This document shows, in pieces, positions 1 to 17,455 of a stretch of DNA of 64,000 bases. The translations under genes and the position numbers were made by a program. Where the stretch lies: positions 62,001 to 126,000 of the forward strand of contig NZ_JAHNZT010000020.1 in the NCBI RefSeq assembly GCF_019039035.1, read 5' to 3'. Numbering within the stretch: the first letter of the stretch is position 1; every line of letters starts with the position of its first letter. The notes under the pieces were generated by a model. That model ran no database searches. It was not told the DNA's origin and saw nothing but the letters and a program-made list of their open reading frames with translations. This DNA is from Citreicoccus inhibens. Its GTDB lineage: Bacteria > Myxococcota > Myxococcia > Myxococcales > Myxococcaceae.

Positions 1-758
1 GCGGAGACGCCGTCTGGCCCGAGTGCCTGCCTCGCCCGCTGAATTGCGTCGAGTGTGCGTCGATGGCTGTCCCCTCCTCGGACAGGACGCTGGGCATTGT
101 GGAGATCCTCGGGCCCGTCCAGAGAGGTCGAGAGCAGCACTCCGTGAACTCGACAGAAGTCCAGCACCTCGTCCGTGAGTCGGGAGAGGTTGCTCGCAAT
201 CACGAACTGGAGAGCCCGGCCATGCACGGCGTTCATGGCCTTGGCCCGCTCGATGATGTACCGGATGCGTTCGAAGTGGAGCAGCGGCTCCCCACCCTGG
301 AACTCGATCTTGAGGGCGGGAGATGGACTGCGGAACATGAAGTCGAGCGCCCGGTCGGCATGTTCCTGCGACATGTCGAACTCGAGGCGGCCTTCCGCCT
401 GCCGGGACACCTGGCAGTAGGCGCACGAGTGGTCGCAGCGCAGGGTGACCACGAAGATGTGCAGCCCGGTGAAGTTCGCCAACTGCTCCGCGCGGGTCCG
501 ATACTTCAGGGCAAGCAGTTCGAGCGCCACGCGTGAGTGTGCGTCGAACAGGAAGTGGCGCGACTTGAGTGCTTGATATGTCGGACGGTCCGGTGGCAGC
601 GAATGGCCAATGAAGTCGACCAACTCCTGCCGGGAGAGCACGACGTATTCGCCGGCGTCGTTCGTGACGACATACCGGGCGGCGTCCAGTCGGCTGAAGC
701 GAACGGGCGCGAGCTGATAGCCCTGCGTGGATTGATACCGGGCGCGGTCATGGAACAT
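1..758 (-). CDS. hxsB: Radical SAM maturase HxsB, C-terminus cut off by window edge
   Basis: Radical SAM enzyme, one of the two that modify the His-Xaa-Ser protein HxsA in the four-gene Hxs cassette. I translated the minus strand from the ATG at 756-758; the frame stays open to base 1. An N-terminal region of about 120 residues precedes a CX3CX2C [4Fe-4S] cluster motif (residues CDHSCAYC). It is followed by the SAM-binding motif EFQGGEP and the strand/turn segments STSLDGP and NAQRP, all typical of peptide-modifying radical SAM proteins. The C-terminal part lies beyond the left edge, as presumably does the partner enzyme HxsC. The start lies 14 bases after the hxsD stop codon, so it is the last visible gene of the operon starting at 10,254. 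Radical SAM identity is certain from the motifs. The HxsB label rests on the adjacent HxsD and HxsA. Confidence 0.85.
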   Translation of the reverse strand, partial: MFHDRARYQSTQGYQLAPVRFSRLDAARYVVTNDAGEYVVLSRQELVDFIGHSLPPDRPTYQALKSRHFLFDAHSRVALELLALKYRTRAEQLANFTGLHIFVVTLRCDHSCAYCQVSRQAEGRLEFDMSQEHADRALDFMFRSPSPALKIEFQGGEPLLHFERIRYIIERAKAMNAVHGRALQFVIASNLSRLTDEVLDFCRVHGVLLSTSLDGPEDLHNAQRPVRGGDSHRRTLDAIQRARQALGPDGVS

Positions 759-772
759 GGCGTGCGTCGAAT

Positions 773-1141
773 TCAGTCCTGGCGAATCAGGTCCGTACGC
801 GAGAAGGCCTGGGCGACAATCAGGGCACGCAGGGCTCGCGTCTCGTCGCCTACCTGTTCCCGGAGCTCCTGGTCCAGCAGCTCCTGGAAGAACAGCCGCA
901 GGGTCTCCAGCGCGTCTTGCTCAGTGACGGTGGGGGCGAAGATGCAGCGAATGGGGAGGCGCTCCTCCTTGGGTGAGTCGAACACCGCAGTGAATTGCTC
1001 CGCGAAGCGGTAGGCGGACTTCTGAATCGCCGCGAGTCGATAGACGCGCAGATCGAGGAGGGTTTGAATCACCCCGTCTCGGAAGATGAAGGGGGATTGT
1101 GTCTCGGTGTCCGTCTTCGTCACCTGATCGCTCCTCACCAT
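773..1141 (-). CDS. hxsD: His-Xaa-Ser system protein HxsD
   Basis: Small soluble protein of 122 residues, with no signal peptide or membrane segment. HxsD is an obligate member of the HxsABCD cassette; its biochemical role is unknown to me, and a helper or recognition role beside the radical SAM enzymes is inference. What marks it is a hydrophobic first strand, then VYRLAAIQKSAYRF, the tyrosine/alanine-rich helix I associate with this family, and a Glu/Arg-rich C-terminal helical region. Its ATG overlaps the end of hxsA by seven bases (1135-1141), which suggests translational coupling, and hxsB starts 14 bases after its stop. A GTG one codon downstream is an alternative start. Confidence 0.78.
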   Translation of the reverse strand: MVRSDQVTKTDTETQSPFIFRDGVIQTLLDLRVYRLAAIQKSAYRFAEQFTAVFDSPKEERLPIRCIFAPTVTEQDALETLRLFFQELLDQELREQVGDETRALRALIVAQAFSRTDLIRQD

Positions 1142-1734
1142 TCAATCGAGACCTGGCCCGTTTGCCCCGCGACGAGCTCCACCTCGACCGTGGTGGAGCC
1201 CAGGAATGGATTCTCGACACGGACCCTGTGCTTGCCCGCAGACAGCCGCATGACTCCCGTCACGTCCACGCCCGCCGGCTTCTCATCGACGAAGATTCGG
1301 CCTCCGGGGTACGCGATGAAGGACACCGACGCCGCCTTGGGCGGAGGGGCGGGATGTGTCCTCGGCTCGGACGCGGGATGCACCTTCGGCTCGGATGAGG
1401 GATACGTGGTGGGTTCGGGCGGTGGTGGGGCCTTCGGTGCAACTGGGGCAACATAGTCGTCACCGCTGTAGCTTCGACTCCTGCTGCCGCTCCCAGAGTA
1501 GTGGCTGCGATGAGAAGAATGGGAGCGATGACCCGCCAGCAGGATCTGGCCCTGCGTGGGAGGCACGACGAGGAGCAGCTCACCCCGCGAGTCCTCTTCA
1601 TCGCGACGCCTCCAGGTGGGCTGGGCGACCTGGAGCGTGATGCCGGGGACGAGTAGCCCCGAGGGCGCCGCGCCACCCAGCAGGCCCATGAGCGCCGCGC
1701 TGACGGAGAGCAGACGGGGAGGTTTCGAGTTCAT
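1135..1734 (-). CDS. hxsA: His-Xaa-Ser repeat protein HxsA with C-terminal PEGA-like domain
   Basis: Probable substrate of the Hxs radical SAM enzymes, 199 residues. An N-terminal hydrophobic stretch (about residues 8-32) could be a signal or membrane anchor. At residues 69-80 there are four contiguous His-Xaa-Ser triplets, HRS HSS HRS HYS, followed by a Ser/Gly/Arg segment; this is the defining motif of HxsA. A proline-rich spacer (about 97-133) leads to a beta-rich C-terminus (about 135-199) with the PEGA-like pattern GGRIFVDEKPAG and a basic hydrophobic strand HRVRVENP. The HxsA proteins I recall do not carry such a domain. The chosen ATG (1732-1734) overlaps the stop of the upstream gene as ATGA, and the 3' end overlaps hxsD. 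A longer open frame continues upstream, but only inside the neighbouring gene. Confidence 0.85.
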   Translation of the reverse strand: MNSKPPRLLSVSAALMGLLGGAAPSGLLVPGITLQVAQPTWRRRDEEDSRGELLLVVPPTQGQILLAGHRSHSSHRSHYSGSGSRSRSYSGDDYVAPVAPKAPPPPEPTTYPSSEPKVHPASEPRTHPAPPPKAASVSFIAYPGGRIFVDEKPAGVDVTGVMRLSAGKHRVRVENPFLGSTTVEVELVAGQTGQVSIEW

Positions 1735-3965
1735 GGCGACACGTCTCCAATCCGCAGCTCCATCAGGGATGTTCCACTCCATCTCGCCACGAGAGGCACC
1801 GCGCCATCCCTCCAGGAGGACTGTGTGGGAGCCTTGCCGGAGAGTGCCTTCGGAGGTGAGGGCAGTTCGACCGAGTGTCCCAGGACACGCGCGAGGAGTG
1901 CCTTCGTGGTTTCGGAACCGCTGCCATTGAGGGCTCGCGAGCCCTTGTTCGCGCCCACCAGATATGCGCCCACGCAGCGCCCGTTCTTGAGTGCGCAGAA
2001 GAGCGTAACTTCTGAGGTGGTCTTCGTCAGGATGTTGGGCGTGCTCCCCGCCGTCAGGTCCATCAGCGCGATGGCCATGGCTCCGTCGGCGCCGATGAGC
2101 GCGATCCGCGCTCGCTCCTCTCGAGCCCACACCGAGGCTTGGTGCGCAAGCTCTCCCAGCTTCGCATCGGATGGGTTTTCCCCCAGCTCGGTGCTGAGCG
2201 CGCTTGTCTTGTCGAGGCGCACGACCCACTCCAGGGTGGCGACCTTGGGGCGAGGCGCAGGGGTCAATTGCTCCACGAGTGCCGTGCGTACCTGTCCGAG
2301 TTGCTGCTCGCGGCTCGGTGTGGGCTCGGCGCGAAGCGCGGCGGACAGGGCCTTCCATCGGCAGAGATCCGTCCCGCATCCTGCGTACTCCGTGTCGTGG
2401 AGACGCGCCGTCAGCTCACCAAAGTCCTTCGCGAATCCTTGCTCGAGCACGGGGCGGGCTGAGGCGAGCACTTCCGATGCGACGTTCACATCCTTGCGCT
2501 CGAGCGCTGCGAGAACCTGCTTCCGCGCGAGGGTCTGGAGATGCTGTTCGACCTTCGACCGCTCCGATGAGCCGGGCTTCAGCAGGAGTGCATCCTTGGC
2601 GACCGCGTCCACATGAAATTCCTGGAGCGCATGGGCGAGATGGAGCGCTGTCCAGGCCGGTTGGAGCCCAGGCTCCTCAGGGCCGCCCAGTGCGATCAGC
2701 TCCAGGTTGGCGTCGTCGAGGCGGCCCTCGGAGATGTGTCGTTGGGCCTCGTCGAGCCTGGGTTCCGATGCCACCGCGAGGACGCCGACCAGGAGCGCGG
2801 AGACCGCTGCGCCGATTCCCCATCGTCGCGCCCGTTCCTTCCGTCCCAGGGTCGAGTGCTGGACGAAGCGCTCGGCCAGAATCGCGGATGCACCGAGGAC
2901 GGTGCTGAGCGCCAACAACAGGCCGTTCCAGAAGTAGACGCCACGCAGGGTGTAGAGCAGTGGCACCCCGATGGCCACCGCGACGAGGGCGGCTCGCGCC
3001 GCGAAGACCTTCCGGGCTCGTGCGGCGAACTGCCGGTCTGCGGCGACGGGGGGCGGGAGCATCCGCTGGCCCTCGAACCCAATCGCTGTCGGGGGCGCGT
3101 CCGTGATGGCGTATGAGACGCGCGCGGTGGGGACGTCGAAGACCTGGAAGCTCTGGCGAGTGATGCGCTCTCGCGACTTGAGTCCGACCTGGGTCTTTCC
3201 CCAATGCGCCTGGAGCCAATCGGCGGAAAAATGGGGTGCGACCTTCTCCCGGGTCAGTACGCCGTTCGCGGTGATCTGGCCCACGAGCTTCGCGTCCTTC
3301 TCCATGTCTCCAGTCGTCCACTCCAGTCGGCGCAGTTCCTCGTCTTCCGTCATCACCAGGAAGTCGAAGCGGACTGCCTCGACGAACTCGAGCCAGCGCT
3401 GTTCCCGGCCGGACCCGCTGCACGTCGAGCAAGACAGCCGGCCTCCAAAACAGCGACGACAAGGCACCATCCCTGTCGCACCGCACGCCTTGCAGTTCAT
3501 GAGCCGGCGGGAGCCGTTCGAGGCCCGGCCATAGGCCTTCCGGGAGCCTCCGCAGTGGGAACAACGAAGCTCTGCTCTGCCTCCGCAATCGGCGCAGGCG
3601 ACATCGCCTCGTCCATCGCACGGAGTGCACGCGAGGACGGAGAGGCTGCTCTCGCGGAGGCTCGCTTGTGTCTCCTCCCAAGGGTCCACGCTGTCCGCGC
3701 TTCGCCTCACGCCCGTGACACGCGGCGAGCCCTGGGCCGTGCTTTCCTTCCACACCACTTGCCGCTCGGTGATGATGGAGTAGAGGCGACAGGCCCTGCG
3801 CACCTGCGGCTCCACCGTGCGGATGAAGTCGGTCGGATTCGCCGGGGGGACGGGCAATCGGCGCGTCCAGTTCGAGAAGGCCTGGACGGCGGCGTGCTGG
3901 ATGGCCTCCTCGCCCTCGAGAGGCATCGGGTCGACTGCCTGGGATTCGTGAGATGGATGGCTCAT
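1731..3965 (-). CDS. Membrane protein with DnaJ-type zinc finger, in Shango/Hxs operon
   Basis: A 744-residue protein of unknown function. An N-terminal soluble region carries a Cys-rich block at about residues 115-190 with repeated CXXCXG motifs (CTPCDGRG, CADCGG, CSHCGG, CKACGATG, CRRCFGG, CSTCSGSG), as in the zinc-binding cluster of DnaJ. There is no J domain. Around residues 315-400 come hydrophobic segments (about three transmembrane helices), followed by a C-terminal region of about 330 residues without a domain I recognise. The ATG at 3965 is preferred because it lies 28 bases after the sngC stop, whereas longer starts would run inside sngC. Its stop overlaps the hxsA start by four bases. 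It therefore links the Shango-like genes to the Hxs genes, and may be a membrane receptor or chaperone-like partner for HxsA (inference). Confidence 0.8.
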   Translation of the reverse strand: MSHPSHESQAVDPMPLEGEEAIQHAAVQAFSNWTRRLPVPPANPTDFIRTVEPQVRRACRLYSIITERQVVWKESTAQGSPRVTGVRRSADSVDPWEETQASLRESSLSVLACTPCDGRGDVACADCGGRAELRCSHCGGSRKAYGRASNGSRRLMNCKACGATGMVPCRRCFGGRLSCSTCSGSGREQRWLEFVEAVRFDFLVMTEDEELRRLEWTTGDMEKDAKLVGQITANGVLTREKVAPHFSADWLQAHWGKTQVGLKSRERITRQSFQVFDVPTARVSYAITDAPPTAIGFEGQRMLPPPVAADRQFAARARKVFAARAALVAVAIGVPLLYTLRGVYFWNGLLLALSTVLGASAILAERFVQHSTLGRKERARRWGIGAAVSALLVGVLAVASEPRLDEAQRHISEGRLDDANLELIALGGPEEPGLQPAWTALHLAHALQEFHVDAVAKDALLLKPGSSERSKVEQHLQTLARKQVLAALERKDVNVASEVLASARPVLEQGFAKDFGELTARLHDTEYAGCGTDLCRWKALSAALRAEPTPSREQQLGQVRTALVEQLTPAPRPKVATLEWVVRLDKTSALSTELGENPSDAKLGELAHQASVWAREERARIALIGADGAMAIALMDLTAGSTPNILTKTTSEVTLFCALKNGRCVGAYLVGANKGSRALNGSGSETTKALLARVLGHSVELPSPPKALSGKAPTQSSWRDGAVPLVARWSGTSLMELRIGDVSP

Positions 3966-3993
3966 GGGAGACAGGGCCTCATCAGGGGAATCG

Positions 3994-6255
3994 TCACTGC
4001 AACACCTGCTGGGCAGCCCGCAGCGCTCCCTGGACATCCAGGTACCGCGCGGCATAGTCGCGAGCGAGCAGCTCCTCCGGCACGAAGCCGTCGTGCTTCT
4101 CGAGGGCCATGTTGGCCACGTAGCGGGTGAGGGACTCAGCTCGAGGTTCGCCCGCTGCTACGAGCGCGCGCAGGGCGCTTTCCACGTCGGATTGTTGCCC
4201 TTCCACGCTGAGCACTGGCCCCAAGGTCTCCACCGCCAACCCATGCGCCCGGAGCGCGAGCGCCAGCGTGTGCACCACCGCGTCGCCAGCCCACGGGAAG
4301 ACATGGACCTGCCGACCGGAGGCCACGATGGCTCGCTCGCTGAGCCTCCAGCGCCGGAAGGTCGCGCGAGCTTCCGTCAGCAGCTCCTGTGCGCGCGCAT
4401 CCAGGTAGCGGGGCAGGGTGTCGCTGGCATAGACCGAGCGCATCTGTTCCCGGACCCGGTCATGCACACCGCCCACGCCGGTCGACTCGAACATGGGGAC
4501 TCGCCCCGCGGGCGCGGGCTCCAACTCCACGACCTTCTCGTCTCCCTGCACGGCAAGCACTCGCCACCGCCGTCCGCCGAAGATGAGGTACGTGCCGACG
4601 AAGAGCGGCTGGTCGATGGGCATCGTGCCCAACGTGCGTCCTCCGCTCACCAGCCGGAACTCCTCCACCGAGGCGAAGGCCGCATAGAAGCTGTAGTGGT
4701 TGACGAGCCGCTCACCGACTCGCCCCAACAGCAGGGTCCCATCCGAGGACTGCGAGATCAGCTCCCGTTGTCCCAAACCCCGCAGGAAGCTCGCGAAGTC
4801 ATGGCGCGCCACCCTCGCGAAGGGACCTTGGTGACACAGCGCCAGGAATGCCTCGCCTGCCTTGACGCCGCCATGCTGGGCGATGAGCGAGAGCAGTTGC
4901 TGCACCAGCGTTGAGAAGTGGTAGGCCCCCGACGCGGGGGGCTCGAACCAGTTCGTCAAGAGCAGGTCGAGCATGGCCACGGATTGGACCAGTCGCACGC
5001 GGAGTTGGTCCGGCAGTGGGCTGGTGCTCGTCAGCTCGGCTTCCTGCAGATACATCCGGAGCACGGCGGGTCCGCCCTTCCGGCCACTTCGCCCCAGGCG
5101 CTGACGGAGGCTGGCCACTGAGGGAGGGACTCCCACCTGCGCGATGCTCTGCACCGCGCCCACATCGATGCCCATCTCCAGCGTGGTGGTGCACACGAGG
5201 CTGACGGGGCGCTGCTTGGCCTTGAGCGCGCTCTCCGCTTCTTCGCGCAGCTCCTTGGAGAGGTTGCCGTGGTGCGGGAAGAACTCGTTGGGCAGCCGCG
5301 CCTCTTCACACATGCGGCGCAACAAGTCCGCGTAGAGTTCGACGTTCGCCCTGCTGTTGGCGAACACGAGGTTGTGTGTCCCCCTCAGCGTCTTGAAAAG
5401 GTGGGCCCCCACGTCGTGCTCGTCCTCGGGCCTGCCGTCAGCGGGCTCAGGGCCACCTGGCCCCCTATTCGAATCGTCTTCGCTGGAGGCGAGCTGCCGC
5501 GCATCGGGCGCGCGCCTGCGATAGCCCCTGAGCTGAAGGAGCAGCTCTCCACCGCCCGCGGTGGAGTTGCACAACTGGACCTTCGCGCCACCGCCGGGCC
5601 GGATGAATTCCGCGGCCAGTGACATATCGCCCAGCGTGGCGCTGAGGCCCACTCGCGGCACGGTGCGACGCAGCGTCAGTTCGAGTCGATGCAGGAGCGA
5701 TTGGAGCTGGCAGCCGCGCTCGGTGCCAATGAAGGCATGCAGTTCATCGATGACAATGACCTCCAGTCCCGAGAACAGTCCCACGAGCGAGGAGCCCTGG
5801 CGGATGAAGAGTGCCTCGAGCGACTCCGGCGTGATGAGGAGAATGCCCGCGGGCGACTTGAGCAGCTGCGCCTTGTGTCCCTGGGAGACATCACCGTGCC
5901 AGCGATGCACGGGGATGCCAAGCCCCGTGCAGAGCCCGTCCAGCCGCTCGAACTGGTCATTGATGAGCGCCTTGAGCGGGCCAACGTAGATGGCGCGCAC
6001 GCTCCCGCCGGCCGCATCGGCCAGCCGGCTGCAAATGGGCAGGAAGGCGGCCTCCGTCTTCCCGCTGGCCGTCGATGCCGAGAGGATGACGTCGTGCGTC
6101 CCCTCGAGGATGGGAGCGATGGCTGCCTCTTGAATGCCTCTCAGCTCCTTCCACCCCTGCGTCCATACCCAGCGCTGCACCTGGGCGTGCAAGCGTTGGA
6201 AGGCGCTCGAGGTGGCGCCGCTCGGGTCAGAGCTTGAAGGATGCGAGCTCATCAT
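3994..6255 (-). CDS. sngC: Lhr-type DEAD/DEAH helicase, Shango SngC-like
   Basis: Superfamily 2 helicase of 753 residues. Motif I is ASTASGKTEAA, motif II is the DELH box in VIVIDELHAF, motif III is SATLGD and motif VI is QRLGRSGRKGG, giving two complete RecA-like domains. The C-terminal half has a winged-helix-like region and a segment resembling Lhr/BrxHI helicases. Such helicases act on DNA or RNA using ATP. Next to a TerB-domain protein and a DUF2791 ATPase this is the composition of the three-gene Shango anti-phage system (SngA, SngB, SngC), as I recall it from published screens. Its start lies 29 bases inside the end of sngB, so translation is probably coupled; an internal start is possible. 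No nuclease motif is seen. Confidence 0.8.
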   Translation of the reverse strand: MMSSHPSSSDPSGATSSAFQRLHAQVQRWVWTQGWKELRGIQEAAIAPILEGTHDVILSASTASGKTEAAFLPICSRLADAAGGSVRAIYVGPLKALINDQFERLDGLCTGLGIPVHRWHGDVSQGHKAQLLKSPAGILLITPESLEALFIRQGSSLVGLFSGLEVIVIDELHAFIGTERGCQLQSLLHRLELTLRRTVPRVGLSATLGDMSLAAEFIRPGGGAKVQLCNSTAGGGELLLQLRGYRRRAPDARQLASSEDDSNRGPGGPEPADGRPEDEHDVGAHLFKTLRGTHNLVFANSRANVELYADLLRRMCEEARLPNEFFPHHGNLSKELREEAESALKAKQRPVSLVCTTTLEMGIDVGAVQSIAQVGVPPSVASLRQRLGRSGRKGGPAVLRMYLQEAELTSTSPLPDQLRVRLVQSVAMLDLLLTNWFEPPASGAYHFSTLVQQLLSLIAQHGGVKAGEAFLALCHQGPFARVARHDFASFLRGLGQRELISQSSDGTLLLGRVGERLVNHYSFYAAFASVEEFRLVSGGRTLGTMPIDQPLFVGTYLIFGGRRWRVLAVQGDEKVVELEPAPAGRVPMFESTGVGGVHDRVREQMRSVYASDTLPRYLDARAQELLTEARATFRRWRLSERAIVASGRQVHVFPWAGDAVVHTLALALRAHGLAVETLGPVLSVEGQQSDVESALRALVAAGEPRAESLTRYVANMALEKHDGFVPEELLARDYAARYLDVQGALRAAQQVLQ

Positions 6256-7567
6256 CTGCTCCGGACACAGGGCTCCCCGCCTCGGTCTCGGTCAGGGGCG
6301 CCAGGTCGGGATTGACGTCCGCGGCGAATTCCACGCCGCCGAGCAACTCCTTCCAGTTCGCGCTCGGGTTCTGTTCGAGCACGGCCAGGAGATTGATGAA
6401 GGCGGTGACGGTGCTCCGGGGCGTGCGGAAGTAGGCCTCGCCGATCCGTTCGGAGCAGTGGGTCATGAAGCCCTGGAGTCCCTCGTCGGGCAGGCGCTGT
6501 GCAGACGTGTCTCCGGCGGAGTAGACATGCCTCAGTTTGGTGAGCAGGACGTACAGGTCCTCGGGGGTGAGGTTGGCCAGCCGGAGGACCGGGGAGCTGT
6601 AGTCAACCATGCTGCCCACCGCGAAAGTGTTCTGGGCCAGTCGGGACTGGAGCGCCTCGTAGCTGTAGAGGCCACGGCGTGTGTCCATGAGGAACTCCGG
6701 TGTCCCTCCCAGGATGAAGCCCAGACCTTCGGCGCTCCCCTGGAGACAATCATTGAGGATGCGGAGGATCTGCTCGTAGTTGGATGCGCGTGCTTTGGTA
6801 TTGGCCAGCTTGTAGAGGTTGACCAGCTCATCCAGGCACACCAAGAGCCCGTCATAGCCAGACAGACGGACGAATCGGGCCAGGAGCTTCAGTTGATCGT
6901 AGACATCCGCGTCGTCGATGATGGTGCGGACTCCGAGTGCCTTGCGCGCATCGGTGCGCGTCGAGAACTCGCCGCGCAGCCACTTCACGGCGTCCGCCTT
7001 GAGCACCTCGTTGCCGCTGTCGTGGCCGCGCCAGTAGGCGGCGATGACCTCCGCGAAGTCGTACCCGCCCACCAGTTCTGACAGTGCGGCGAGCTTCTCC
7101 CGGATGACCACCTCGGCATTCTGGTTGCGGCTCTTCGCGTCCGTGAGGGCGCTGGAGACGAAGCGCTCCACGACGCTGGCGAGCGCGCCGCCCTCAGGGC
7201 GGGCTCGGGTGGCCAGATTGCGCATCAGCTCCGCGTAGAGTCCGCGAGCCTTGCCGTCCGTTGCGTGGATGCGCCGGTCGGGATTGAGGTCCGCGTGCAG
7301 GGTGACGAGCCGCTTCTCCAAGGCGATGGAGCGGATGAGATTGAGGAAGAACGTCTTGCCAGAGCCGTACTCGCCGATGACGAAGCGGATGGCACTTCCT
7401 CCCTCGGCGATTCGCTCGACGTCGCGGACCAGGGCCCGGACTTCCTCCACTCGACCGACCTGGATGTGTTGTTGACCCACGCGAGGCACCACACCCGCGC
7501 GCAGCGACTGGACGATGGCGTCCCGATCCTTGGGCCTGATGCGTCCCTGCGGTGTCGCGTCTGTCAT
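6227..7567 (-). CDS. sngB: BrxD/DUF2791-like ATP-binding protein, Shango SngB-like
   Basis: P-loop ATPase of 446 residues. The Walker A motif is GEYGSGKTFF (near residue 66) and the Walker B motif is LLVCLDELVNLY (about residue 240). The segment after it, LRILNDCLQG followed by GFILGGTPEF, matches the sensor-containing core of the BREX ATP-binding family (DUF2791, BrxD). In Shango the ATPase sits between the TerB protein and the helicase, exactly as here. It probably provides ATP-dependent assembly or loading for the helicase, but this is inference. The ATG overlaps the sngA stop by four bases (7564-7567). Confidence 0.82.
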   Translation of the reverse strand: MTDATPQGRIRPKDRDAIVQSLRAGVVPRVGQQHIQVGRVEEVRALVRDVERIAEGGSAIRFVIGEYGSGKTFFLNLIRSIALEKRLVTLHADLNPDRRIHATDGKARGLYAELMRNLATRARPEGGALASVVERFVSSALTDAKSRNQNAEVVIREKLAALSELVGGYDFAEVIAAYWRGHDSGNEVLKADAVKWLRGEFSTRTDARKALGVRTIIDDADVYDQLKLLARFVRLSGYDGLLVCLDELVNLYKLANTKARASNYEQILRILNDCLQGSAEGLGFILGGTPEFLMDTRRGLYSYEALQSRLAQNTFAVGSMVDYSSPVLRLANLTPEDLYVLLTKLRHVYSAGDTSAQRLPDEGLQGFMTHCSERIGEAYFRTPRSTVTAFINLLAVLEQNPSANWKELLGGVEFAADVNPDLAPLTETEAGSPVSGADDELASFKL

Positions 7568-10254
7568 GACATCATCTCCTTGACCGCCAACTCATTGAGC
7601 TGAAGTGTTTCGTCGCCCTCGAGGATGGGCTCGCCGCATACCTCGAACGCCGCATCGTTGATGACGTCCAGCGCGCCGTCGGGAAGCAGGCCGAGTCCGC
7701 TGGCGAGCCTCTCCACCTCCGAGCGCGGCCACTCCGGCTTCGCGACGAGCGCGCGCAGGAGGGAGGTGTGCAGGGCATCCAGACCCGCGACCCCTGACGC
7801 GGTTGCGGATGGGCTCACCGGAGCCTCGTGAGGTGAGGTGTCCTCATCCGCGAAGATGCTGCCCAGGAGACTGGAGACCGCAGCGGTCTCCACCAGCTTG
7901 GCCTGGACACTCCGCATGTCGAGCGCCAGCCGGTCGCTTTTCTCGGGAGGCTGTGCCGGGAGGGTAAAGCCTTGTTCCGGCGTGCCAGCCAGTCGCATGG
8001 AGACGGGCCCGGTCGCCGGCGGGGGACGGGCCGCCGAGGCAGCGTGGATCTTCGAGTAGACGCTGTTCTCGTCCAGTCCCAGCATGGCGTAGAGCTTCGA
8101 CAGGGTCTTGATCTCCTGGGGGGATACGTTGCCGTCCGCCATGGCGACGTCGACCAGGAGGTTTCCGAGTGATGTCCGGGCCTCGGGTGTCAGGGCTTCC
8201 ACGCGCTTCTTGTGGCCTGTGCTGGAGGCAGGCCTCGCGAGCAGCCACGCGATATGGGCCCGGAGCCGGACTGTCTCCGCGGCGAGCAGCCCTGGTGCCA
8301 TGTCCACCCACGCTTCCATGCGCGTGACTTCTTCTGGGGAGACCGTTCCATCGGCGGTCGCCACGGCGCCGGCGAGGTGGAGCATGGCGAGCGTCGACAG
8401 GTAGCTCGGGGAAGGCGCGCTCGGTGAGTCGGGAGGGAGCGCGAAGATGCGGGCGGACTCGTCGGCCGAGAGCACCGCGCCGCCCATGCGAGGGTCAGGC
8501 TCCATGCCGTAGCCCAGCTTCTCGAGCGCCTGCGCGAGGCCCACGGCCTCGGACTTGGAGAGTTTGTTGGCGGTTGCGGTGGGCCAGTGCTTCAGCAACT
8601 CGGAGGCGGCGACTGGCGCTGAGCCGCCGCTTCCCAAGGCTTGTCGTAGGACCGCGCGGAGCGCCTGTACATCCGACCCACCCTCCATGGAGGTCGCCAA
8701 CTCGGGAGGGAGCAGCGCCAGGGCGCTCATGCTGTTGCGCGCGTCGGGGTTCTTCCCCACCCAGCGACTGTAGGACTCAAGCGAATTGCAGCAGTCCTCG
8801 ATGAGTGCGCGGACGGGTTTGAGAGACGTCTCCGAGGCCTCGTTGACGGACGTCGATGCCAGTCGCACGGGGCCTCCGAAAGAGGCGCTCGCGGGGCTGT
8901 AGCGGGCCTCCACCTTCGCCTTCCTGGCTCGCGGGACGGTGCCCGCGCCGAGGTCTCGCTGATAGCGCGCGCGGAAGAGGGCCTGGAACTCCTCGGGGCA
9001 GCGGGTGGCGGGTGTTCGCAGTGGGGTGTCACTGGCCTCCACGGCCCATGCCAGGGCCCAGTCCGCTGGGAGTGCGAGCCCCTGAGTGGCGGCGGCGCCC
9101 ACGGCCATGCGCACATCGAACGAAGCTGCGCCGGCGTGCCTCAGTGTGAACTGGGGGACCTCCTTCAACAGACCGCTCTCGCCGGTGCGACGCACGCGGA
9201 GGACGTCGAGGAGGGCTGAGGCGTAGCTCCGGAACGAGTTGCTCGCCCTGTAGACGTCGAGGAGACCTTGGACCTCGTCTTCGATGAGTCGGGCCTCGGC
9301 GAGGGCGTCGGGGTCCGTGCCGAGGTCGTGAATCACGCGCCGTTCCAGTCCATAGAAGAACAGGAAGACAAAGCCGACATAGGCACCGGGTTGGCGACGT
9401 CCGCCTGCGAGCCATTCGAGGTATCCCGCCCGCGAGGCGGGCGAGACCTCCGAGTACGAGGGCCAGTACCCCATGCCCTCTCCGTCGCGATTCGGTCGCG
9501 AGGCGACCTGAAGTTTGGGCTGGATGAGGGCGGGCTCGGTGCCCGGCGCATTCACGGCGCGCAGCTGTGGTCCCACATAGAGCATTCCGCCTTTGAGCGC
9601 GTACCCGGCAATCTCGATGGACTGTCCTGGCGGAATCCAGCGCGTCGGCTGCGGCGCGGTGGGCGACACCGTGGGCGCAGAGGCGGCTGGCACGGGCGCG
9701 ACGGATTCACTGGGGCGCGCAGGAGCGCTGCTGGACGCGGGCTCCTTGATGGGCGTGGATACGGCGGTTGGGCCTGCGTTGACGCGCTGTACACGCCCGT
9801 CGGTCTTCTGTGGCGGTGCGGACTCCCCTCGCATCTCGATGGGGGCGGACGGCGCTGGGACACTGGCCGCACGCATTGGGCTCGCAGGTCCCTCACGGGG
9901 CGTGGTCGGTGTGGAGGCACTCCCTGTGAAGGCGTGCGTGGCGCGTCTGAACTCCGGTGGGGGATCATCTGGGATGTGGGCCCTGAGGCCCGGGGCGATC
10001 GTCGGTGCGCTTGCCGTCTCGAATCGCAGGGCGATGGGGGAGGAGTCCGGCGCCGAGGACGCGGAGCCGATAAGGCGGGCACCGCCGGCACGGGCCTGCT
10101 GCGCGGCCTTCCATCGGGCATTGAGCTTGTTGAGCCAGACAATGCCTCCCCACGCCCCAAGCCCAACGACGACCAGACAACACAGCGTCCCGCCGACTCC
10201 GTCTGATTGAGCTGCGGCCACCAGGGTCGGCAGCGCCCGTATCCATACCCCCAT
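7564..10254 (-). CDS. sngA: TerB-N/TerB/TerB-C domain protein, Shango SngA-like
   Basis: First gene of the operon, 896 residues. A hydrophobic segment at about residues 20-40 looks like a single N-terminal membrane anchor. Residues about 80-205 are a Pro/Ala/Ser-rich linker. A TerB-N-type domain follows (about 205-420; GYWPSYSEVSPASRAGYLEW and a VFLFFYGLERR helix). A TerB domain lies at about 640-760, with two acidic Asp-Gly loops (ATADGTVSPEE and AMADGNVSPQE) that could bind metal. The last 120 residues resemble TerB-C. This order is usual for the TerB member of Shango. The ATG at 10,254 is the first in frame and keeps the anchor. If the anchor is real, the defence complex would sit at the inner membrane, which would suit the membrane protein encoded further down the operon. 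Confidence 0.8.
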   Translation of the reverse strand: MGVWIRALPTLVAAAQSDGVGGTLCCLVVVGLGAWGGIVWLNKLNARWKAAQQARAGGARLIGSASSAPDSSPIALRFETASAPTIAPGLRAHIPDDPPPEFRRATHAFTGSASTPTTPREGPASPMRAASVPAPSAPIEMRGESAPPQKTDGRVQRVNAGPTAVSTPIKEPASSSAPARPSESVAPVPAASAPTVSPTAPQPTRWIPPGQSIEIAGYALKGGMLYVGPQLRAVNAPGTEPALIQPKLQVASRPNRDGEGMGYWPSYSEVSPASRAGYLEWLAGGRRQPGAYVGFVFLFFYGLERRVIHDLGTDPDALAEARLIEDEVQGLLDVYRASNSFRSYASALLDVLRVRRTGESGLLKEVPQFTLRHAGAASFDVRMAVGAAATQGLALPADWALAWAVEASDTPLRTPATRCPEEFQALFRARYQRDLGAGTVPRARKAKVEARYSPASASFGGPVRLASTSVNEASETSLKPVRALIEDCCNSLESYSRWVGKNPDARNSMSALALLPPELATSMEGGSDVQALRAVLRQALGSGGSAPVAASELLKHWPTATANKLSKSEAVGLAQALEKLGYGMEPDPRMGGAVLSADESARIFALPPDSPSAPSPSYLSTLAMLHLAGAVATADGTVSPEEVTRMEAWVDMAPGLLAAETVRLRAHIAWLLARPASSTGHKKRVEALTPEARTSLGNLLVDVAMADGNVSPQEIKTLSKLYAMLGLDENSVYSKIHAASAARPPPATGPVSMRLAGTPEQGFTLPAQPPEKSDRLALDMRSVQAKLVETAAVSSLLGSIFADEDTSPHEAPVSPSATASGVAGLDALHTSLLRALVAKPEWPRSEVERLASGLGLLPDGALDVINDAAFEVCGEPILEGDETLQLNELAVKEMMS

Positions 10255-11987: not shown

Positions 11988-14900
11988 TTACAACTCCCAC
12001 GCCCACGTCTTGCAACCGAGCGGCCCCATGCTGAAGCCCGCCCCGGGGCCAATCACGGCGCCGTACGTATCAGGGTGCAGAATGTCGTGTCCCTCGACGA
12101 ACCCCGTGACGCCCACGCCTGCTCCCGCGGAGATGAAGCCGCCCGCACTCCAGCCTTCGAAGTCGGCCAGGGTATGGGTATCCGTGACCCATCCGAAACC
12201 CACGCCGCATCCCAGGTGAGGCTTCTTCCAGTCTCCCGGCGGAACGGCGGCGAATCCACAGACACTCGTGACCGCGACGGTGAAGGGCGCGGACGTGCAG
12301 TTGTAGATGCCTCCGAATCCGAGCCCGCCGAATCCGCCGATGGTCACCTCGCCCAGGGCGATGGGCGCCCCTATCCAGAATCCGCCCGGGCAGCGCGAGG
12401 CCAGACCATCGGGATCCACGAACCCCAGGGGGTTGTTCTGGGCATAGCCATACGCGGGGACCGCTCGTCCCTGTAGTGCCATCTGGGCCACGTACGTGGG
12501 GGAGCGCAGGAGCGGCTCGGGCTGCAGGAACCGGCCCGTCTCCGCGTCGTAGTAGCGGTTCCGGAAGTAGTGGAGGCCGGTGCCGTCCTCCTCGCGTCCC
12601 GTGAACGTGCGCGTGTTGCCAGCGGCGCTCCCCGTGTGCGTGGACGCACCGTAGGGCTCGTAGCTGTACTCGGCGCTCAGCGCCCCTGCGTCGTCGGACA
12701 GGGCCACCGTCGAGCCGAGCACGTCAGTGAGGAAGTCATGCGTGCCCGAGGGGCTCTGCCGGCTGTACGCCTCGTCCATGCCGAGCCCGGTGAGCAACTG
12801 GGTGGAGACACCGTTGCTCCGCTCCTCGATGGTGTTGGCGCCGCTGTAGAGGTAGTCCGTGGAGACGCCCGCCACCGTCTTGCGCGAGCGCCGGCCCATG
12901 GGCTCGTAGGCGAACTCCGCGAGCGTGGCCAGACTGTCGCTGACCCGCTCGAGGTGGCCGCGCACGTCCCAGGTGTAGTTCTTGAGTCCATCGGAGACGA
13001 GGTTGCCATTGGCATCGTAGGTGAGCGTGCGGCCCTTCCAGGTCGTCAACTGGCTCGCCGCGTCGTACACCGCTCCGGCGACCGATTGGGGCAGGCCGGT
13101 TCGCGCGAAGGTCCCTCCAGTCGAGACGCGGTCACCGTTCGCGTCGAAGCCGTAGGACAGGTCGCCCAGGACCGTGGTGCCCCGGCTGTACTCGATGCGC
13201 GTGAGCGTGCCGCTGGCGTCGTAGGTGTAGCGTTGGGTCACGCCGCCCGGCAGGGTGGTGGAGGCGCGGCGGCCAGAGGCGTCATATGTGAAGGCGACCG
13301 TGCGGCTTCCCTGCGTGATGGTGGTCAACCGGCCCGCGTCGTCATAGGCATAGACCCCCAGGGCTTGCCCCGGCGCCGACACCCCCGTCAACCGGTTGGC
13401 GGCGTCGTAGGTGTAGCCCACCGCTCCGTTGGGCGTCACGTTCTCCACGAGCCGGTCGAGAGGATCGTAGGTGAAGGTGACGACCGGCCCCAGGCTGTCC
13501 TCGACGCGGTTGAGGCGCTGAACGCTGTCGTACGCGTAGCTGAGCGAGTTGGTGAACGCCTGGGGGCTGGTGGCCGTGGCACCGAACCCGCGTGACGTCA
13601 GCCGGCCCGCGGCGTTGTAGTTCCAGCCGCTCACTTGCCCCTTCCGGTCTCGGAAGGACGTCAGGCGGCCCGCCAGGTCATAGCCGAACGCCTCCGTGCG
13701 CCCGAGCGGATCCATCCGCTCCGTCAACTGGCCCAGCGCGTTGTAGCTGTAGAGCGTCTCCTTGCCCCGCGGGTCCTTCACCCGCGTGAACTTGCCAGTC
13801 TTGTCATAGGTAAAGGCTGTGGCGTGGCCGAGCGGGTTGGTGTGCCGGGTGAGCCGGTCCCGGGCATCGTACTGGTATCGGTCCACCTGTCCGCCGGGGC
13901 TGCGGCGGGCCACCATGCGCCCGAGCGCGTCACGGATGAACTCCGTCGTCCGCCCTCCTGCGTCTGTCAGCGCGACGAGGTCCGCCCCTTCATAGCCATA
14001 GGTGATGGCCCCGTCCGTGCCGATCCTCACGGAAGTCAAACGCCCCTGAGAGTCGTGCGTGTACTCCGAGACGCGCCCCGTTGGGTCCTCGACCCGCGCG
14101 AGGTTGCCCGCCTCGTCATACCGATACACTGTCAGGTGGCCGAGCTCGTCCCGGACGCTCGTGAGCTTGTTGTCCGCCGTATAGGTGTACTGCATCGTGA
14201 CCGCGTTGGGCGTGCCTGCCAGATGCGTCGCCTGGGTCACGTTGCCCCGCGCGTCATGCACATACTCGGTCCGGCGCCCCGCGAAGTCGGTCGTGGCCAC
14301 GCGCCGCCCATTGGTGGGCGCGACATCGAACGTCGTCACCCGCTCCTCGGGCCTGCCGGCAGGGTACGCATCCCGGACGATGTAGCCCGAGTTGAAGTCC
14401 ACGCGCCGCACGAGGCCCGCGCGGTCCTTCACTTCCGTGCGGATCACCTGCTCACCGTCGCGGACATCGCAGGGGCCGTTGGGGTAGCACTGCACGACGA
14501 GGTTCGGCGTGTAGGTGAACTCGAACGTGCTGCCATCCACGAGCGTCTGCTTCGAAACGCGTCCCCGGCTCCCGTACTCGTTCTGGATGACGAGCCGGTT
14601 CTCCTCGTCGACGACGGTCGCCATGAAGTTGGACGCGTTGTAGGTGTACTTCCGCGTGCCGCCCGCGGCGTCCGTTACCTGCAGCAGGCGCCCCTGGGTG
14701 TCGTAGGCATAGGCCACGACACGGCCGCCGCTGTCCTTCGCCTGGGTGGTCAGCGAGTTGGTGTCGATGGTGAACTCCACCCAGCGACCGGACGGCCCGT
14801 CGATGCGGGTGATGGGGCCCGAGGTGCCATTCTGGCGTGTGATGAGCACCACGTTGCCATGGGGATCCGCCACCTCAGCCAGGCGATGTGCGTGGTTGAA

Positions 14901-17420
14901 GCTCAAGCGCTGGCCATTGCGGAAGGTCAGGTCCCAACCCATCAGTCGCGAGTTGTAGGTGATGCGCGAGCCAGACCAGGGGCCCGGGTACGTCGTCTCG
15001 AACACCGCGTCCGGGTAGTTCGTGCCGGGCGAGATGCGCTCATAGCGAATGCGCGTGCCGTCGGGATTGACCAGTTCGTACTGCGTGAAGTCGCTCGTGG
15101 GCCTCCAGAGGAACACCTCGTAGTTGGACGTCATGCCGACGCCAAACTGCCGCCGCGTGAGGTCCAGGGAGCGATAGGTGCGCTCCATCCGGATGGGGAC
15201 GATGTCCTGAACGACCAAGTCTACGTCCGTAGTGAGGAATTGGCCGGAGGAAAGCATGACAGGGTCTCCGCCCGTCAGACTTCCCGGGGCCCCCGCGGAT
15301 CCGCCGTTGCACCCGCCGCCACCACCACCTCCTCCTCCGCCGCCACCGCCACAGCATTCCGTGTTGCAGCCGCCGCCCACGGGGGGAGGCGGCGCGTCAG
15401 GGTTGCTGAAGCCGGCGCCGACGAAGCCATACAGGGCCACGCCGTCATCGGGAATGACCTGGCGGGCATCGGCGCTGATGCTGCCCAGTCCATACGCAAT
15501 CCATCCGCTGCCGTTGGCGTCGTAGTTCCAGAAGTTGGCCTTCGCTCCGGGCAACTCGCCGCGATAGTTGGCGTAGTACAATCTGGCGCCGCTGAAGCCC
15601 GGCGTCAGGCCTTCGAAGCGCGCGTCTCCTGGCTGGAGTGTGAAGTACAGCGGCATCTCCAGGTTTGGCAGCGGGAAGGGCGCCTGGTTGATGGGGATGG
15701 GGGTGATGTTGATCTCCGTCAGGATGTTGCCGGCCCGGTCACGCACCACCGTGCCCGGCGGCAGTCGCAGCTCCAGGCCGGGGATGGCCGGAGTGGTCAA
15801 CGCCACCTCCTCGGTGGTGGGGCTGGGCATTGACACGGTGCCCTGAGGATCCAATCGGGGCATCCACACCGTGTGGCCCAGCGGGTTGGTGTGTCCCTCC
15901 TCCACGTCTACATGCATGAAGAAGAGGCCGTAGCGGACGTTGCCGTGGTTGGCGGTCTGGCCATTGACCTCCAGCGTCTGACTGCCGGGCTTGAGGCCCG
16001 CCACGAGGAATCGGCCCTCGGAGTCCGTCTCGGTGGCCACGCCTCGCACCACCACGCGCACGCCCGCCAGCGGCTTGCCGTTGAGGCGCAGCACGCGGCC
16101 GGAGAGCGCGGTGACTCCCGCCGGCGCCTGCAGCGGTTCGACCGGCGTCACCTTCGGCTCGTGCGAGCGCCAGCTGCCAGTGAAGTTCTCCGGGCCCGGC
16201 AGCCACGTCTCCCCATCGTCGAAGAGCGGCCGCTCCGGTGCGCGCCAGTCGTAGCGACCGTTCGCTCCCTTCTTCTCCGTGGGGCGCAGCGAGGCGACGG
16301 GTTGAGCCTTCGCCGCGGCGCGCCCCATCTCTGGCCTGGGCAGCCGGACATCATGGGCGCCCATCCCAGCGGCCAGCGAGGCCGTGGTGAAGCCCACCGT
16401 GGTGAGCGGCAGCGCCGCGTCGGCTTCATCCTTCAGTCCTTGCACATAGAGGGTGTAGGCCGTGGCCGGCAGCAGCGCCTGCTCGGGGCGGATGAAGATG
16501 AGTCGGCCGCTCTCGGCATAGGTGACGTTCGCCTCCACCGCGCCCAGCGGCCCGGAGAGGATGACCGCCTCCGCGTCCCCCGGTAGCACGGGGTGGCTCA
16601 GTCGCACGCTCAGCAGGCTCTGCACGGGCACCGCGTGGGCGCTGTCGCCCGGGATGGAGCCCGCCACGGTCAGCGCGCGGTCCACTTGCAGCAGACGCTC
16701 GCGCTCGGTGGCATCCAGCCGCACAAAGCGCTGCGTGCTCGGGTCGAACAGCTCCGCGGTGGGGGTCGAGCCCGGCGCGTCTCCGCCTGTCAGCAGGACC
16801 CGCCCATCCGGCAGCAGCACGGCCGAGTGCCCCGCGCGAGCTGTCTGCATGCGGGACGACAGCCGCGTTACTTGCAGCGTGCGGGAGTCGAGGACCTCCG
16901 CCGTGTCGCTGGCGGCGCCCCCGTCGGTCTCTCCGCCCGCGAGCAGCACGCGGCCATCGGTCAGCAGGGTGGCTGTATGTCGAGCGCGAGGCGACAGGTG
17001 CACCTCCATGGCGGTGGTGAAGGCCGGGGCCTCGGGCGCGAACCATTCCGCGTTCGTGACGAGTCGTCCGTCCGCGCCACGGCCGCCCGCTACCAGGACG
17101 CGGCCTCCCGGCATCACCGTCGCCGTCTGGCCGAAGCGCGCACGCGCAAGGCCTTGCACGAGCGGTTCGGATGCGGCGCCATCCCGCTGGAGCGCCGCCC
17201 AGGTCGAGGCCTTCTTCGCGTCGCCCCCACCGAGCAGCAGCCACCGACCGTCGGACAGTCGCGTCGCGCTTTGCCCACCGAGGGTTGCGGGTGTGCCCGC
17301 GATGAGCGCCTGGACCGCGTCGCTGGGGACTTCTGCGAAGGGCACCTCGTCCGCGCAGCCCACCATGGCCGCCAGGACCAGGCTGCATGTTGTGATTGAG
17401 AAACGTTTCACTCGAGACAT
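11988..17420 (-). CDS. Kelch/RHS-repeat surface lipoprotein with variable C-terminal tip
   Basis: A protein of 1,810 residues. The ATG at 17,418-17,420 follows a GGGGAG site and gives a lipoprotein signal ending AAMVGC. Residues about 50-235 hold four Kelch-like motifs (DGRWLLLGGG, GGRVLVAGG, DGRVLLAGG, DGRVLLTGG). Next come an Ig-like domain, a carboxypeptidase-regulatory-like domain (LNGKPLAGVRVVVRG), a poly-Gly/Cys linker, and the RHS entry segment (SSGQFLTTDVDLVVQDIVPI). About 20 YD/RHS repeats follow. The RHS core ends with ETGRFLQPEP and NNPLGFVDPDG. After it is a Gly-rich tip of about 125 residues with several Cys, unlike any toxin I know. RHS shells typically enclose and deliver their tip, so a toxin or adhesin tip is possible. 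It starts 35 bases after the TIG/PPC gene. Confidence 0.85.
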   Translation of the reverse strand: MSRVKRFSITTCSLVLAAMVGCADEVPFAEVPSDAVQALIAGTPATLGGQSATRLSDGRWLLLGGGDAKKASTWAALQRDGAASEPLVQGLARARFGQTATVMPGGRVLVAGGRGADGRLVTNAEWFAPEAPAFTTAMEVHLSPRARHTATLLTDGRVLLAGGETDGGAASDTAEVLDSRTLQVTRLSSRMQTARAGHSAVLLPDGRVLLTGGDAPGSTPTAELFDPSTQRFVRLDATERERLLQVDRALTVAGSIPGDSAHAVPVQSLLSVRLSHPVLPGDAEAVILSGPLGAVEANVTYAESGRLIFIRPEQALLPATAYTLYVQGLKDEADAALPLTTVGFTTASLAAGMGAHDVRLPRPEMGRAAAKAQPVASLRPTEKKGANGRYDWRAPERPLFDDGETWLPGPENFTGSWRSHEPKVTPVEPLQAPAGVTALSGRVLRLNGKPLAGVRVVVRGVATETDSEGRFLVAGLKPGSQTLEVNGQTANHGNVRYGLFFMHVDVEEGHTNPLGHTVWMPRLDPQGTVSMPSPTTEEVALTTPAIPGLELRLPPGTVVRDRAGNILTEINITPIPINQAPFPLPNLEMPLYFTLQPGDARFEGLTPGFSGARLYYANYRGELPGAKANFWNYDANGSGWIAYGLGSISADARQVIPDDGVALYGFVGAGFSNPDAPPPPVGGGCNTECCGGGGGGGGGGGGGCNGGSAGAPGSLTGGDPVMLSSGQFLTTDVDLVVQDIVPIRMERTYRSLDLTRRQFGVGMTSNYEVFLWRPTSDFTQYELVNPDGTRIRYERISPGTNYPDAVFETTYPGPWSGSRITYNSRLMGWDLTFRNGQRLSFNHAHRLAEVADPHGNVVLITRQNGTSGPITRIDGPSGRWVEFTIDTNSLTTQAKDSGGRVVAYAYDTQGRLLQVTDAAGGTRKYTYNASNFMATVVDEENRLVIQNEYGSRGRVSKQTLVDGSTFEFTYTPNLVVQCYPNGPCDVRDGEQVIRTEVKDRAGLVRRVDFNSGYIVRDAYPAGRPEERVTTFDVAPTNGRRVATTDFAGRRTEYVHDARGNVTQATHLAGTPNAVTMQYTYTADNKLTSVRDELGHLTVYRYDEAGNLARVEDPTGRVSEYTHDSQGRLTSVRIGTDGAITYGYEGADLVALTDAGGRTTEFIRDALGRMVARRSPGGQVDRYQYDARDRLTRHTNPLGHATAFTYDKTGKFTRVKDPRGKETLYSYNALGQLTERMDPLGRTEAFGYDLAGRLTSFRDRKGQVSGWNYNAAGRLTSRGFGATATSPQAFTNSLSYAYDSVQRLNRVEDSLGPVVTFTYDPLDRLVENVTPNGAVGYTYDAANRLTGVSAPGQALGVYAYDDAGRLTTITQGSRTVAFTYDASGRRASTTLPGGVTQRYTYDASGTLTRIEYSRGTTVLGDLSYGFDANGDRVSTGGTFARTGLPQSVAGAVYDAASQLTTWKGRTLTYDANGNLVSDGLKNYTWDVRGHLERVSDSLATLAEFAYEPMGRRSRKTVAGVSTDYLYSGANTIEERSNGVSTQLLTGLGMDEAYSRQSPSGTHDFLTDVLGSTVALSDDAGALSAEYSYEPYGASTHTGSAAGNTRTFTGREEDGTGLHYFRNRYYDAETGRFLQPEPLLRSPTYVAQMALQGRAVPAYGYAQNNPLGFVDPDGLASRCPGGFWIGAPIALGEVTIGGFGGLGFGGIYNCTSAPFTVAVTSVCGFAAVPPGDWKKPHLGCGVGFGWVTDTHTLADFEGWSAGGFISAGAGVGVTGFVEGHDILHPDTYGAVIGPGAGFSMGPLGCKTWAWEL

Positions 17421-17455
17421 GACTCTCCCCATGGGGAATTTGGAAGAAACCGGGC

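What the first reader, a model, noticed from the sequence alone, without database searches (positions are those of the whole stretch)
1..10254. Shango-like defence genes fused in one operon with a His-Xaa-Ser peptide maturation cassette
Seen: seven minus-strand genes in order TerB protein, DUF2791 ATPase, Lhr helicase, DnaJ-zinc-finger membrane protein, HxsA, HxsD, HxsB, with four-base to 29-base overlaps or gaps under 30 bases at every junction. Known families: the first three match the Shango anti-phage system; HxsABCD is a radical SAM peptide-modifying cassette of unknown role. Inference: the modified HxsA peptide could be a sensor, effector or signal of the defence module, with the zinc-finger membrane protein as bridge. 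I know of no description of this combination.
Basis: partly seen in the sequence, partly recalled or inferred. Interest (0 to 1): 0.9.

Follow-up and report, generated by a model that had tools for sequence, protein, structure and literature searches.

The report
Phage-defence operon carrying peptide-maturation genes
In several soil-dwelling myxobacteria, a known three-gene phage-defence system is built into one conserved eight-gene unit with enzymes predicted to modify an exported histidine/serine-rich protein of unknown role; whether the two halves work together is a question that simple gene deletions could now answer.

Summary
The window's minus strand carries a complete Shango trio (SngA, SngB, SngC), a zinc-finger/membrane protein (ZnM), HxsA, HxsD and HxsB; HxsC follows just outside the window, so the unit has eight genes. 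The same order, with nearly identical junction spacing, occurs in 8 of 195 Myxococcota genomes; a ninth, Myxococcus dinghuensis, has a decayed remnant. Gene trees fit one joining event in the Myxococcaceae. All eight genes show purifying selection, and the two copies in the window's genus have unrelated flanks in the stretches compared. Both reader-stated refutations fail as far as sequence can test them.

ZnM belongs to the Hxs side: it accompanies Hxs genes without Shango, so it was not made as a bridge. Shango and Hxs are usually separate; outside Myxococcaceae I saw one case of proximity (Peristeroidobacter, divergent, not an operon) and no general association. Predicted topology is suggestive: SngA membrane-anchored, ZnM spanning the membrane, HxsA exported. 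Functional coupling is plausible, not shown. No description of the combination appeared in the paper searches made.

The parts
7564..10254 (-). SngA: N-terminal hydrophobic segment, long Pro/Ala-rich linker, then TerB_N, TerB and TerB_C domains (896 aa)
   Evidence: PADLOC SngA 3.8e-91; Pfam TerB_N 2.6e-50, TerB 5.4e-11, TerB_C 1.6e-22; hydrophobic segment
6227..7567 (-). SngB: BrxC/BrxD-type AAA ATPase, Walker A GEYGSGKT (446 aa)
   Evidence: PADLOC SngB 9.8e-184; Pfam BrxC_BrxD 3.7e-156; motif
3994..6252 (-). SngC: Lhr-like/BrxHI-like DEAD/H helicase, Walker A and DELH intact (752 aa; alternative start at 6255)
   Evidence: PADLOC SngC 7.4e-278; DEAD and Helicase_C; motifs
1731..3965 (-). 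ZnM (name used here): N-terminal domain, DnaJ-like zinc finger with 6 CxxC, hydrophobic segments, TPR-like helices, C-terminal alpha/beta domain (744 aa with the first Met; searches used 743 aa from codon 2)
   Evidence: alignment A2, CxxC count, AlphaFold model mean pLDDT 71.2, C-terminal domain model 88.2; only a sub-cut-off Pfam match (GRXCR1-2_C 0.00027), none in PADLOC
1135..1734 (-). HxsA: signal-like hydrophobic N-terminus (by eye), HxS repeat, Pro-rich linker, PEGA-like C-terminal domain (199 aa)
   Evidence: TIGR03979 33.3 bits, below the 121.65 cut-off; PEGA 0.0089, below cut-off; repeats
773..1123 (-). HxsD (116 aa; alternative starts upstream, up to 1141)
   Evidence: TIGR03976 68.2 bits, cut-off 50
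1..758 (-). HxsB radical SAM maturase, 5' part; the gene continues beyond the window edge (480 aa, L002:11316-12758) and is followed outside the window by HxsC (L002:10150 to about 11325)
   Evidence: TIGR03978 593.3 bits, cut-off 370; HxsC TIGR03977 400.1 bits, cut-off 267.9; CxxxCxxC in both
3966..3993 (-). Gap between the Shango half and the Hxs half: 28 bases from SngC stop to ZnM start, with an SD-like site and no terminator-like site
   Evidence: constant +28 spacing in 8 of 8 operons; scan

Best explanation
Shown or strongly supported: this is a composite operon in which a complete Shango trio is followed, 28 bases downstream, by a five-gene Hxs cassette (ZnM-HxsA-HxsD-HxsB-HxsC). The data fit one joining in the Myxococcaceae, after which the block is kept as a unit. 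Inferred mechanism: HxsB and HxsC, helped by HxsD, modify the His-Xaa-Ser repeat of HxsA in the cytoplasm. HxsA is exported and held in the envelope by its C-terminal domain. ZnM spans the inner membrane, zinc finger inside, C-terminal domain outside. SngA is anchored in the same membrane, and SngB and SngC act on nucleic acid near it. The Hxs module would be an envelope-side accessory that reports phage arrival, or shapes the place of DNA entry, for a Shango core that can already act alone. Component identity, order and common origin are about 0.95 likely; the confidence given is for the coupled-function reading.
For: Eight-gene order in 8 of 195 Myxococcota genomes with near-constant junctions. 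In genera g1 and g19 the genomes with SngA and those with HxsB over cut-off are the same eight. M. dinghuensis has a remnant in which both halves are damaged. HxsB of the eight is one clade (99/99, 100% of 200 bootstrap trees); SngB of the eight plus the remnant groups together (92/95), next to solo Shango of the same family. Median dN/dS 0.09-0.34 over the eight genes. Catalytic motifs intact in 8 of 8. Window and G073, same genus, share no flank genes in the stretches compared. Topology: hydrophobic segment ahead of the TerB domains in 15 of 16 SngA frames, the 16th cut by its contig end; hydrophobic segments in mid-ZnM of L060, L112 and L140; the ZnM C-terminal domain occurs alone behind a signal-like N-terminus, and the two best fold matches of its alpha/beta part are secreted proteins (4ifa Z 7.9, 4h0a Z 7.1); HxsA of Vibrio ruber ends in PG_binding_1 (6.7e-12).
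Against: Shango protects without Hxs (PMC10250203, passages seen). 77 of 80 HxsB loci from the genome collection show no Sng gene in the flank held. ZnM also occurs with Hxs without Shango. No clear enrichment outside Myxococcaceae. The eight genomes represent one event, so the Fisher p of 5.5e-5 is not independent evidence. The label 'combined' is not a clean clade in the SngB tree (2 changes; one clade in 14% of bootstrap trees), because the remnant falls inside. Topology rests on hydrophobicity, reading by eye and fold matches with Z under 8.
Confidence: 0.42

Rival explanations
1. Two independent modules share a promoter and travel together. Shango defends against phages by itself; Hxs does an unrelated envelope job, such as metal binding or a surface structure. 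The joining was kept because co-transfer or shared expression is useful, like a defence island reduced to one operon.
For: Each half is known alone: Shango in four Myxococcota genomes and on plasmids, Hxs on plasmids, in a Leptospira phage record and in many genomes. One joining event is enough. No wider association.
Against: Near-constant spacing and no separation seen in g1 and g19; zinc-finger-bearing ZnM in all eight, while five Hxs loci of g5 and g7 without Shango have only its C-terminal domain. G085 keeps full ZnM without Shango, which weakens that last point.
Confidence: 0.42
2. The modified HxsA is the effector: an exported peptide that harms the infected cell's envelope or competing cells, released or unmasked when Shango senses infection.
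For: Two radical SAM maturases acting on a repeat protein resemble RiPP pathways; HxsA has a signal-like N-terminus (by eye).
Against: HxsA carries folded C-terminal domains (PEGA-like; PG_binding_1 in Vibrio ruber) rather than a leader/core design; none of the eight genes is recognisable as a protease, exporter or immunity protein; Hxs cassettes are widely carried without Shango.
Confidence: 0.07
3. The Hxs half is mobile cargo and Shango protects that cargo from other elements.
For: Hxs occurs on many plasmids (415 records), in 13 IMG/VR loci and in a Leptospira phage record; unrelated flanks in the window's genus; the Peristeroidobacter locus has both near restriction and mobilisation-like genes (by eye).
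Against: No tRNA in L002 and only one in the window, at 28869; no integrase was noticed in the translations beside the block, though no family search was made there; six g19 copies share overlapping flank genes, as expected of descent in place.
Confidence: 0.06

Closest known systems
Shango (SngA-SngB-SngC)
   Same: Same three genes, order and domains; strong PADLOC matches. Protective in P. aeruginosa PAO1 and, as cited there, in E. coli (PMC10250203, passages seen).
   Different: Described there as a three-gene system; here the operon continues into five Hxs-side genes across a constant 28-base gap.
His-Xaa-Ser (Hxs) system: HxsA, HxsB, HxsC, HxsD
   Same: HxsB, HxsC and HxsD over NCBI's curated cut-offs; HxsA with HxS repeat. 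The HxS motif and the HxsB/HxsC pair are attributed to Haft and Basu in PMC9062424 (passages seen).
   Different: Preceded by ZnM and by Shango; HxsA is below its family cut-off and ends in a PEGA-like domain.
BREX accessory ATPase and helicase (BrxD, BrxHI)
   Same: SngB matches BrxD (4.4e-48) and SngC matches BrxHI (5e-124) in PADLOC.
   Different: Both score far better as Shango proteins; none of the seven window proteins was a BREX methylase or phosphatase.
Ter/TerB stress-response clusters with membrane parts
   Same: TerB_N, TerB and TerB_C with ATPase and helicase partners; a proposed membrane link for Ter systems is recalled, not read here.
   Different: None of the eight genes was identified as TerC, TerD or TerZ; membrane parts here are the SngA segment and ZnM.

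Membership tests
Shango | SngA, SngB, SngC adjacent, in that order, same strand | tested here: met
   same in 8 of 8 combined loci
Shango | Domains TerB_N/TerB/TerB_C, BrxC/D-type ATPase, Lhr-like helicase, motifs intact | tested here: met
Shango | Anti-phage activity | not testable with these tools
   needs an infection assay
Hxs system | Two radical SAM maturases HxsB and HxsC | tested here: met
   593.3 bits against 370; 400.1 against 267.9
Hxs system | HxsD next to them | tested here: met
   68.2 bits against 50
Hxs system | HxsA with His-Xaa-Ser repeats in the same cassette | tested here: inconclusive
   4 to 5 HxS units in 8 of 8 but 33.3 bits against a 121.65 cut-off
Hxs system | Chemical modification of HxsA | not testable with these tools
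   needs mass spectrometry
BREX | BREX core genes (methylase, phosphatase, BrxC) in the unit | tested here: not met
   no window protein of the seven scored best as a BREX protein (HxsB as its window part only); HxsC and the flanks were not scanned with PADLOC

The most novel reading that the evidence does not exclude
HxsABCD is an envelope-side sensor or signal module for phage defence: radical-SAM-modified HxsA, displayed in the periplasm, detects phage adsorption or DNA entry and, through the membrane-spanning zinc-finger protein, switches on membrane-anchored Shango. This would give the Hxs family a function and Shango a trigger.
Probability: 0.22. Interest if true: 0.88.

Novelty: new variant of a known kind. 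Interest (0 to 1): 0.6.

Why it matters
Neither a trigger for Shango nor a function for the widespread Hxs cassette was given in the passages I saw. A stable natural joining of the two offers a direct test: remove the Hxs half and measure protection. The predicted membrane segment of SngA, seen in solo Shango as well, is of use in its own right, since it suggests that Shango acts at the membrane.

Tried and rejected
ZnM as a Shango-specific bridge: rejected, because it occurs with Hxs without Shango. General Hxs-Shango co-occurrence: not found outside Myxococcaceae. Of the six SngA hits at 1e-20 in 75 Hxs-bearing genomes, three (G230, G233, G235) cover only the C-terminal half of the profile and I do not count them as full SngA; of the other three, G197 is adjacent (L116), while G213 and G260 have it on another contig. 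Viral contigs: none of 13 Hxs loci shows Sng genes, and SngA was not found in the 10 of those virus records searched whole. Plasmids: 1 of 4 Hxs plasmids checked, a Klebsiella IncF plasmid, carries SngA, about 32 kb from Hxs; the other hundreds of plasmid records were not checked for both.

Defence enrichment around Hxs: I gave the family scan 150 of 354 neighbour proteins from 35 loci; 17 PADLOC models matched at 1e-15 and transposase/integrase models were the most frequent Pfam hits. There was no control set, so I draw no conclusion.

Solved relatives: none by sequence for ZnM, SngB or SngA; SngC matches Lhr-type helicases. Fold search with full ZnM had no match at 1e-3 and mostly TPR-like rows; the C-terminal domain had none at 1e-3 and a best VIA Z of 7.9, which may be only a common arrangement; several other rows there match only its N-terminal helices. 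The promoter scan gave one site in the region, on the plus strand inside SngC, i.e. nothing upstream of SngA; it does not cover myxobacterial promoter types. An early HxsC profile drifted to unrelated proteins; HxsC labels there outside the eight operons were set aside and the profile rebuilt.

Limits: the HxsB genome scan kept the best 80 of 174 relatives, and many flanks are shorter than 10 kb. Membrane segments are from a Kyte-Doolittle window, signal peptides by eye; only 2 of 5 short ZnM pass the threshold, L060 ZnM also shows a fourth weak segment near its C-terminus, and the SngA segment of L107 lies 200 residues into an open frame with an uncertain start. Paper searches were capped listings (20 of 1,399; 3 of 3; 12 of 82; 25 of 186; 12 of 12; 12 of 214); several papers naming Shango (for example PMC10221251, PMC11973324, PMC11680222, PMC10121019) and one with a single hxsD mention (PMC10686908) were seen as listings only.
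Full report
Setting. The window is bases 62001-126000 of contig 36 of a 9.05-Mb genome. Its genus (g1) is not named by the tools.

Observation. On the minus strand of 1-10254 lie SngA, SngB, SngC, ZnM, HxsA, HxsD and HxsB. Reading beyond the edge shows full-length HxsB (480 aa) and HxsC (about 391 aa). Beyond HxsC the next gene on that strand is an alpha/beta-hydrolase-like fragment (my reading of the translation). The unit is therefore SngA-SngB-SngC-ZnM-HxsA-HxsD-HxsB-HxsC. ZnM starts at 3965; searches used the translation from its second codon.

Conservation. In 195 Myxococcota genomes, HxsB-type matches at 1e-60 occur in 41 (31 over the family cut-off), SngA in 12 and SngB in 13. Eight genomes have the identical eight-gene order: G000, G073, G116, G117, G119, G120, G130 and G131. 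Four SngA genomes (G080, G088, G057, G155) have Shango without Hxs genes beside it and no HxsB match at 1e-60. In G113, pieces of SngA, SngB, ZnM, HxsB and HxsC remain, with HxsB interrupted; SngC and HxsA were not detected there. In genera g1 and g19 the genomes with SngA and those with HxsB over cut-off are the same eight; other g19 genomes have only a distant HxsB-like gene below the cut-off. Junction spacing is nearly constant. The SngC/ZnM gap is 28 nt and no terminator-like site falls in it (5 sites in the region, 4.1 expected by chance; three on the minus strand, all inside genes).

Origin and mobility. In the HxsB tree the eight combined copies form one clade (99/99); the remnant (85/65) and then G085, which has no SngA match, branch next to it (the ten together 96/92), and five Hxs copies of g5 and g7 without Shango lie outside. 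In the SngB tree the combined copies plus the remnant group together (92/95), beside the solo Shango of G080 and G088; the remnant falls inside the group there, so 'combined' alone is not a clean clade. One joining of two modules already present in the family explains this. Flank genes of the window copy match no other copy compared, nor do those of G073 from the same genus; each of the six g19 copies shares at least one flank gene with another. All eight genes show purifying selection (median pairwise dN/dS 0.09 for SngB to 0.34 for ZnM, 28 pairs each), and radical SAM, Walker and DExH motifs are intact in 8 of 8.

What ZnM is. ZnM has an N-terminal domain, a six-CxxC zinc finger of DnaJ type (my reading of the spacing), hydrophobic segments in the middle, TPR-like helices and a C-terminal alpha/beta domain. 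It accompanies Hxs without Shango beside it: in full in G085 (ZnM and the start of HxsA on one contig, the rest of the cassette on another; the joining is inferred) and in L112, and without its C-terminal domain in L140, whose genome G213 has Shango on another contig. In five genomes of g5 and g7 only the C-terminal domain is kept, behind a signal-like N-terminus. A second, distant ZnM-like family was found in 12 Myxococcaceae genomes. In L221, L224 and L225 it is followed by a small secreted-looking protein with a YHYH-like motif and a PEGA-like C-terminus (both names are my reading, and Pfam gave no match for the L221 pair). ZnM therefore belongs to the Hxs/PEGA side.

Topology. A hydrophobic segment ahead of the TerB domains is present in 15 of 16 SngA frames examined, from combined, solo, plasmid and other-phylum loci; the sixteenth (L100, a viral contig) is cut by its contig end. 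HxsA proteins show a signal-like start by eye and differ in their C-terminal domains: PEGA-like in Myxococcaceae (below cut-off), PG_binding_1 in Vibrio ruber (6.7e-12), with similar sequences in a few others by eye. The ZnM C-terminal domain weakly resembles domains of secreted proteins (Z 7.9 and 7.1; no Foldseek match at 1e-3). Together these point to a membrane-linked arrangement: SngA anchored, ZnM spanning, HxsA outside. This is inference.

How far the link goes. Of 80 HxsB loci from the genome collection (best of 174), Sng genes lie within the flank held in 3: L108 and L160, which are the Myxococcus cases above, and L116, Peristeroidobacter agariperforans. In L116 the Shango trio is divergent, with an Mrr-type endonuclease gene between (Mrr_cat 3.2e-34), near methylase-like and mobilisation-like genes (my reading); that is co-residence rather than an operon. 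SngA anywhere in the genome was found in 6 of the 75 other Hxs genomes (that count includes L116), over most of the profile in 3. In 369 Gammaproteobacteria, 5 have HxsB and 7 SngA, overlapping only in the centre genome G197, which is L116's. In Myxococcota 8 of 12 SngA genomes have HxsB over cut-off against 23 of 183 others (Fisher p 5.5e-5; 5.3e-4 with all HxsB matches), but this rests on one event.

Literature. Searches for Hxs names gave two papers relevant by their passages, PMC8446631 and PMC9062424; neither passage links Hxs to defence, though the first lists hxs genes among others of P. aeruginosa that include phage, conjugation and CRISPR genes. Shango is described as a three-gene system with modest effect on plates and strong protection in liquid in PMC10250203 (passages); PMC10952713 lists TerB in Shango and Bunzi (passage). 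A search for Shango with Myxococc terms listed no paper on this combination by title (12 of 214 listed). Haft and Basu, Millman et al. and work on Ter systems were not read; they are known here through citations or recall.

Judgement. The anatomy is solid and the combination appears undescribed in what I could search. It is best filed as a new variant: a composite Shango operon with an Hxs envelope module. Coupled function and independent modules are about equally likely on present evidence; the sensor idea is the boldest reading that is not excluded.

Noticed in passing
L221:8275-11039; L224:7027-9770; L225:7249-10061: A second zinc-finger/membrane/TPR family related to ZnM (27-31% identity, 12 Myxococcaceae genomes); in these three loci a small secreted-looking YHYH plus PEGA-like protein follows it (names by eye).
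   Followed up: partly
L079, L095-L099: An HxsB-like clade below the family cut-off (about 309-322 bits) sits beside proteins of about 565 and 473 aa in several Myxococcaceae genomes.
   Followed up: no
L116:2044-12618: Peristeroidobacter agariperforans has divergent Shango and Hxs genes with an Mrr-type endonuclease gene between them, beside methylase-like and mobilisation-like genes.
   Followed up: partly
L101 (Klebsiella plasmid NZ_CP054265.1): One IncF plasmid carries both an Hxs cassette and, about 32 kb away, SngA; both families are frequent on Klebsiella plasmids (318 and 449 records).
   Followed up: partly
L105 (Leptospira phage vB_LnoZ_CZ214-LE1): An hxsA-D-B-C cassette is annotated in a phage record, next to a 'mobilome CxxCx(11)CxxC' protein.
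   Followed up: no
L100: A viral-collection contig encodes SngA (cut), SngB and SngC, i.e. Shango on a putative viral or mobile contig.
   Followed up: no
window 11988-21790: Two neighbouring long genes upstream of the operon on the same strand; their translations show YD-repeat (RHS-like) motifs by eye.
   Followed up: no
L173, L180, L198, L199, L140, L112: HxsA proteins from different phyla swap C-terminal domains (PEGA-like, peptidoglycan-binding-like, lectin-like, mostly by eye) behind a shared HxS repeat.
   Followed up: partly
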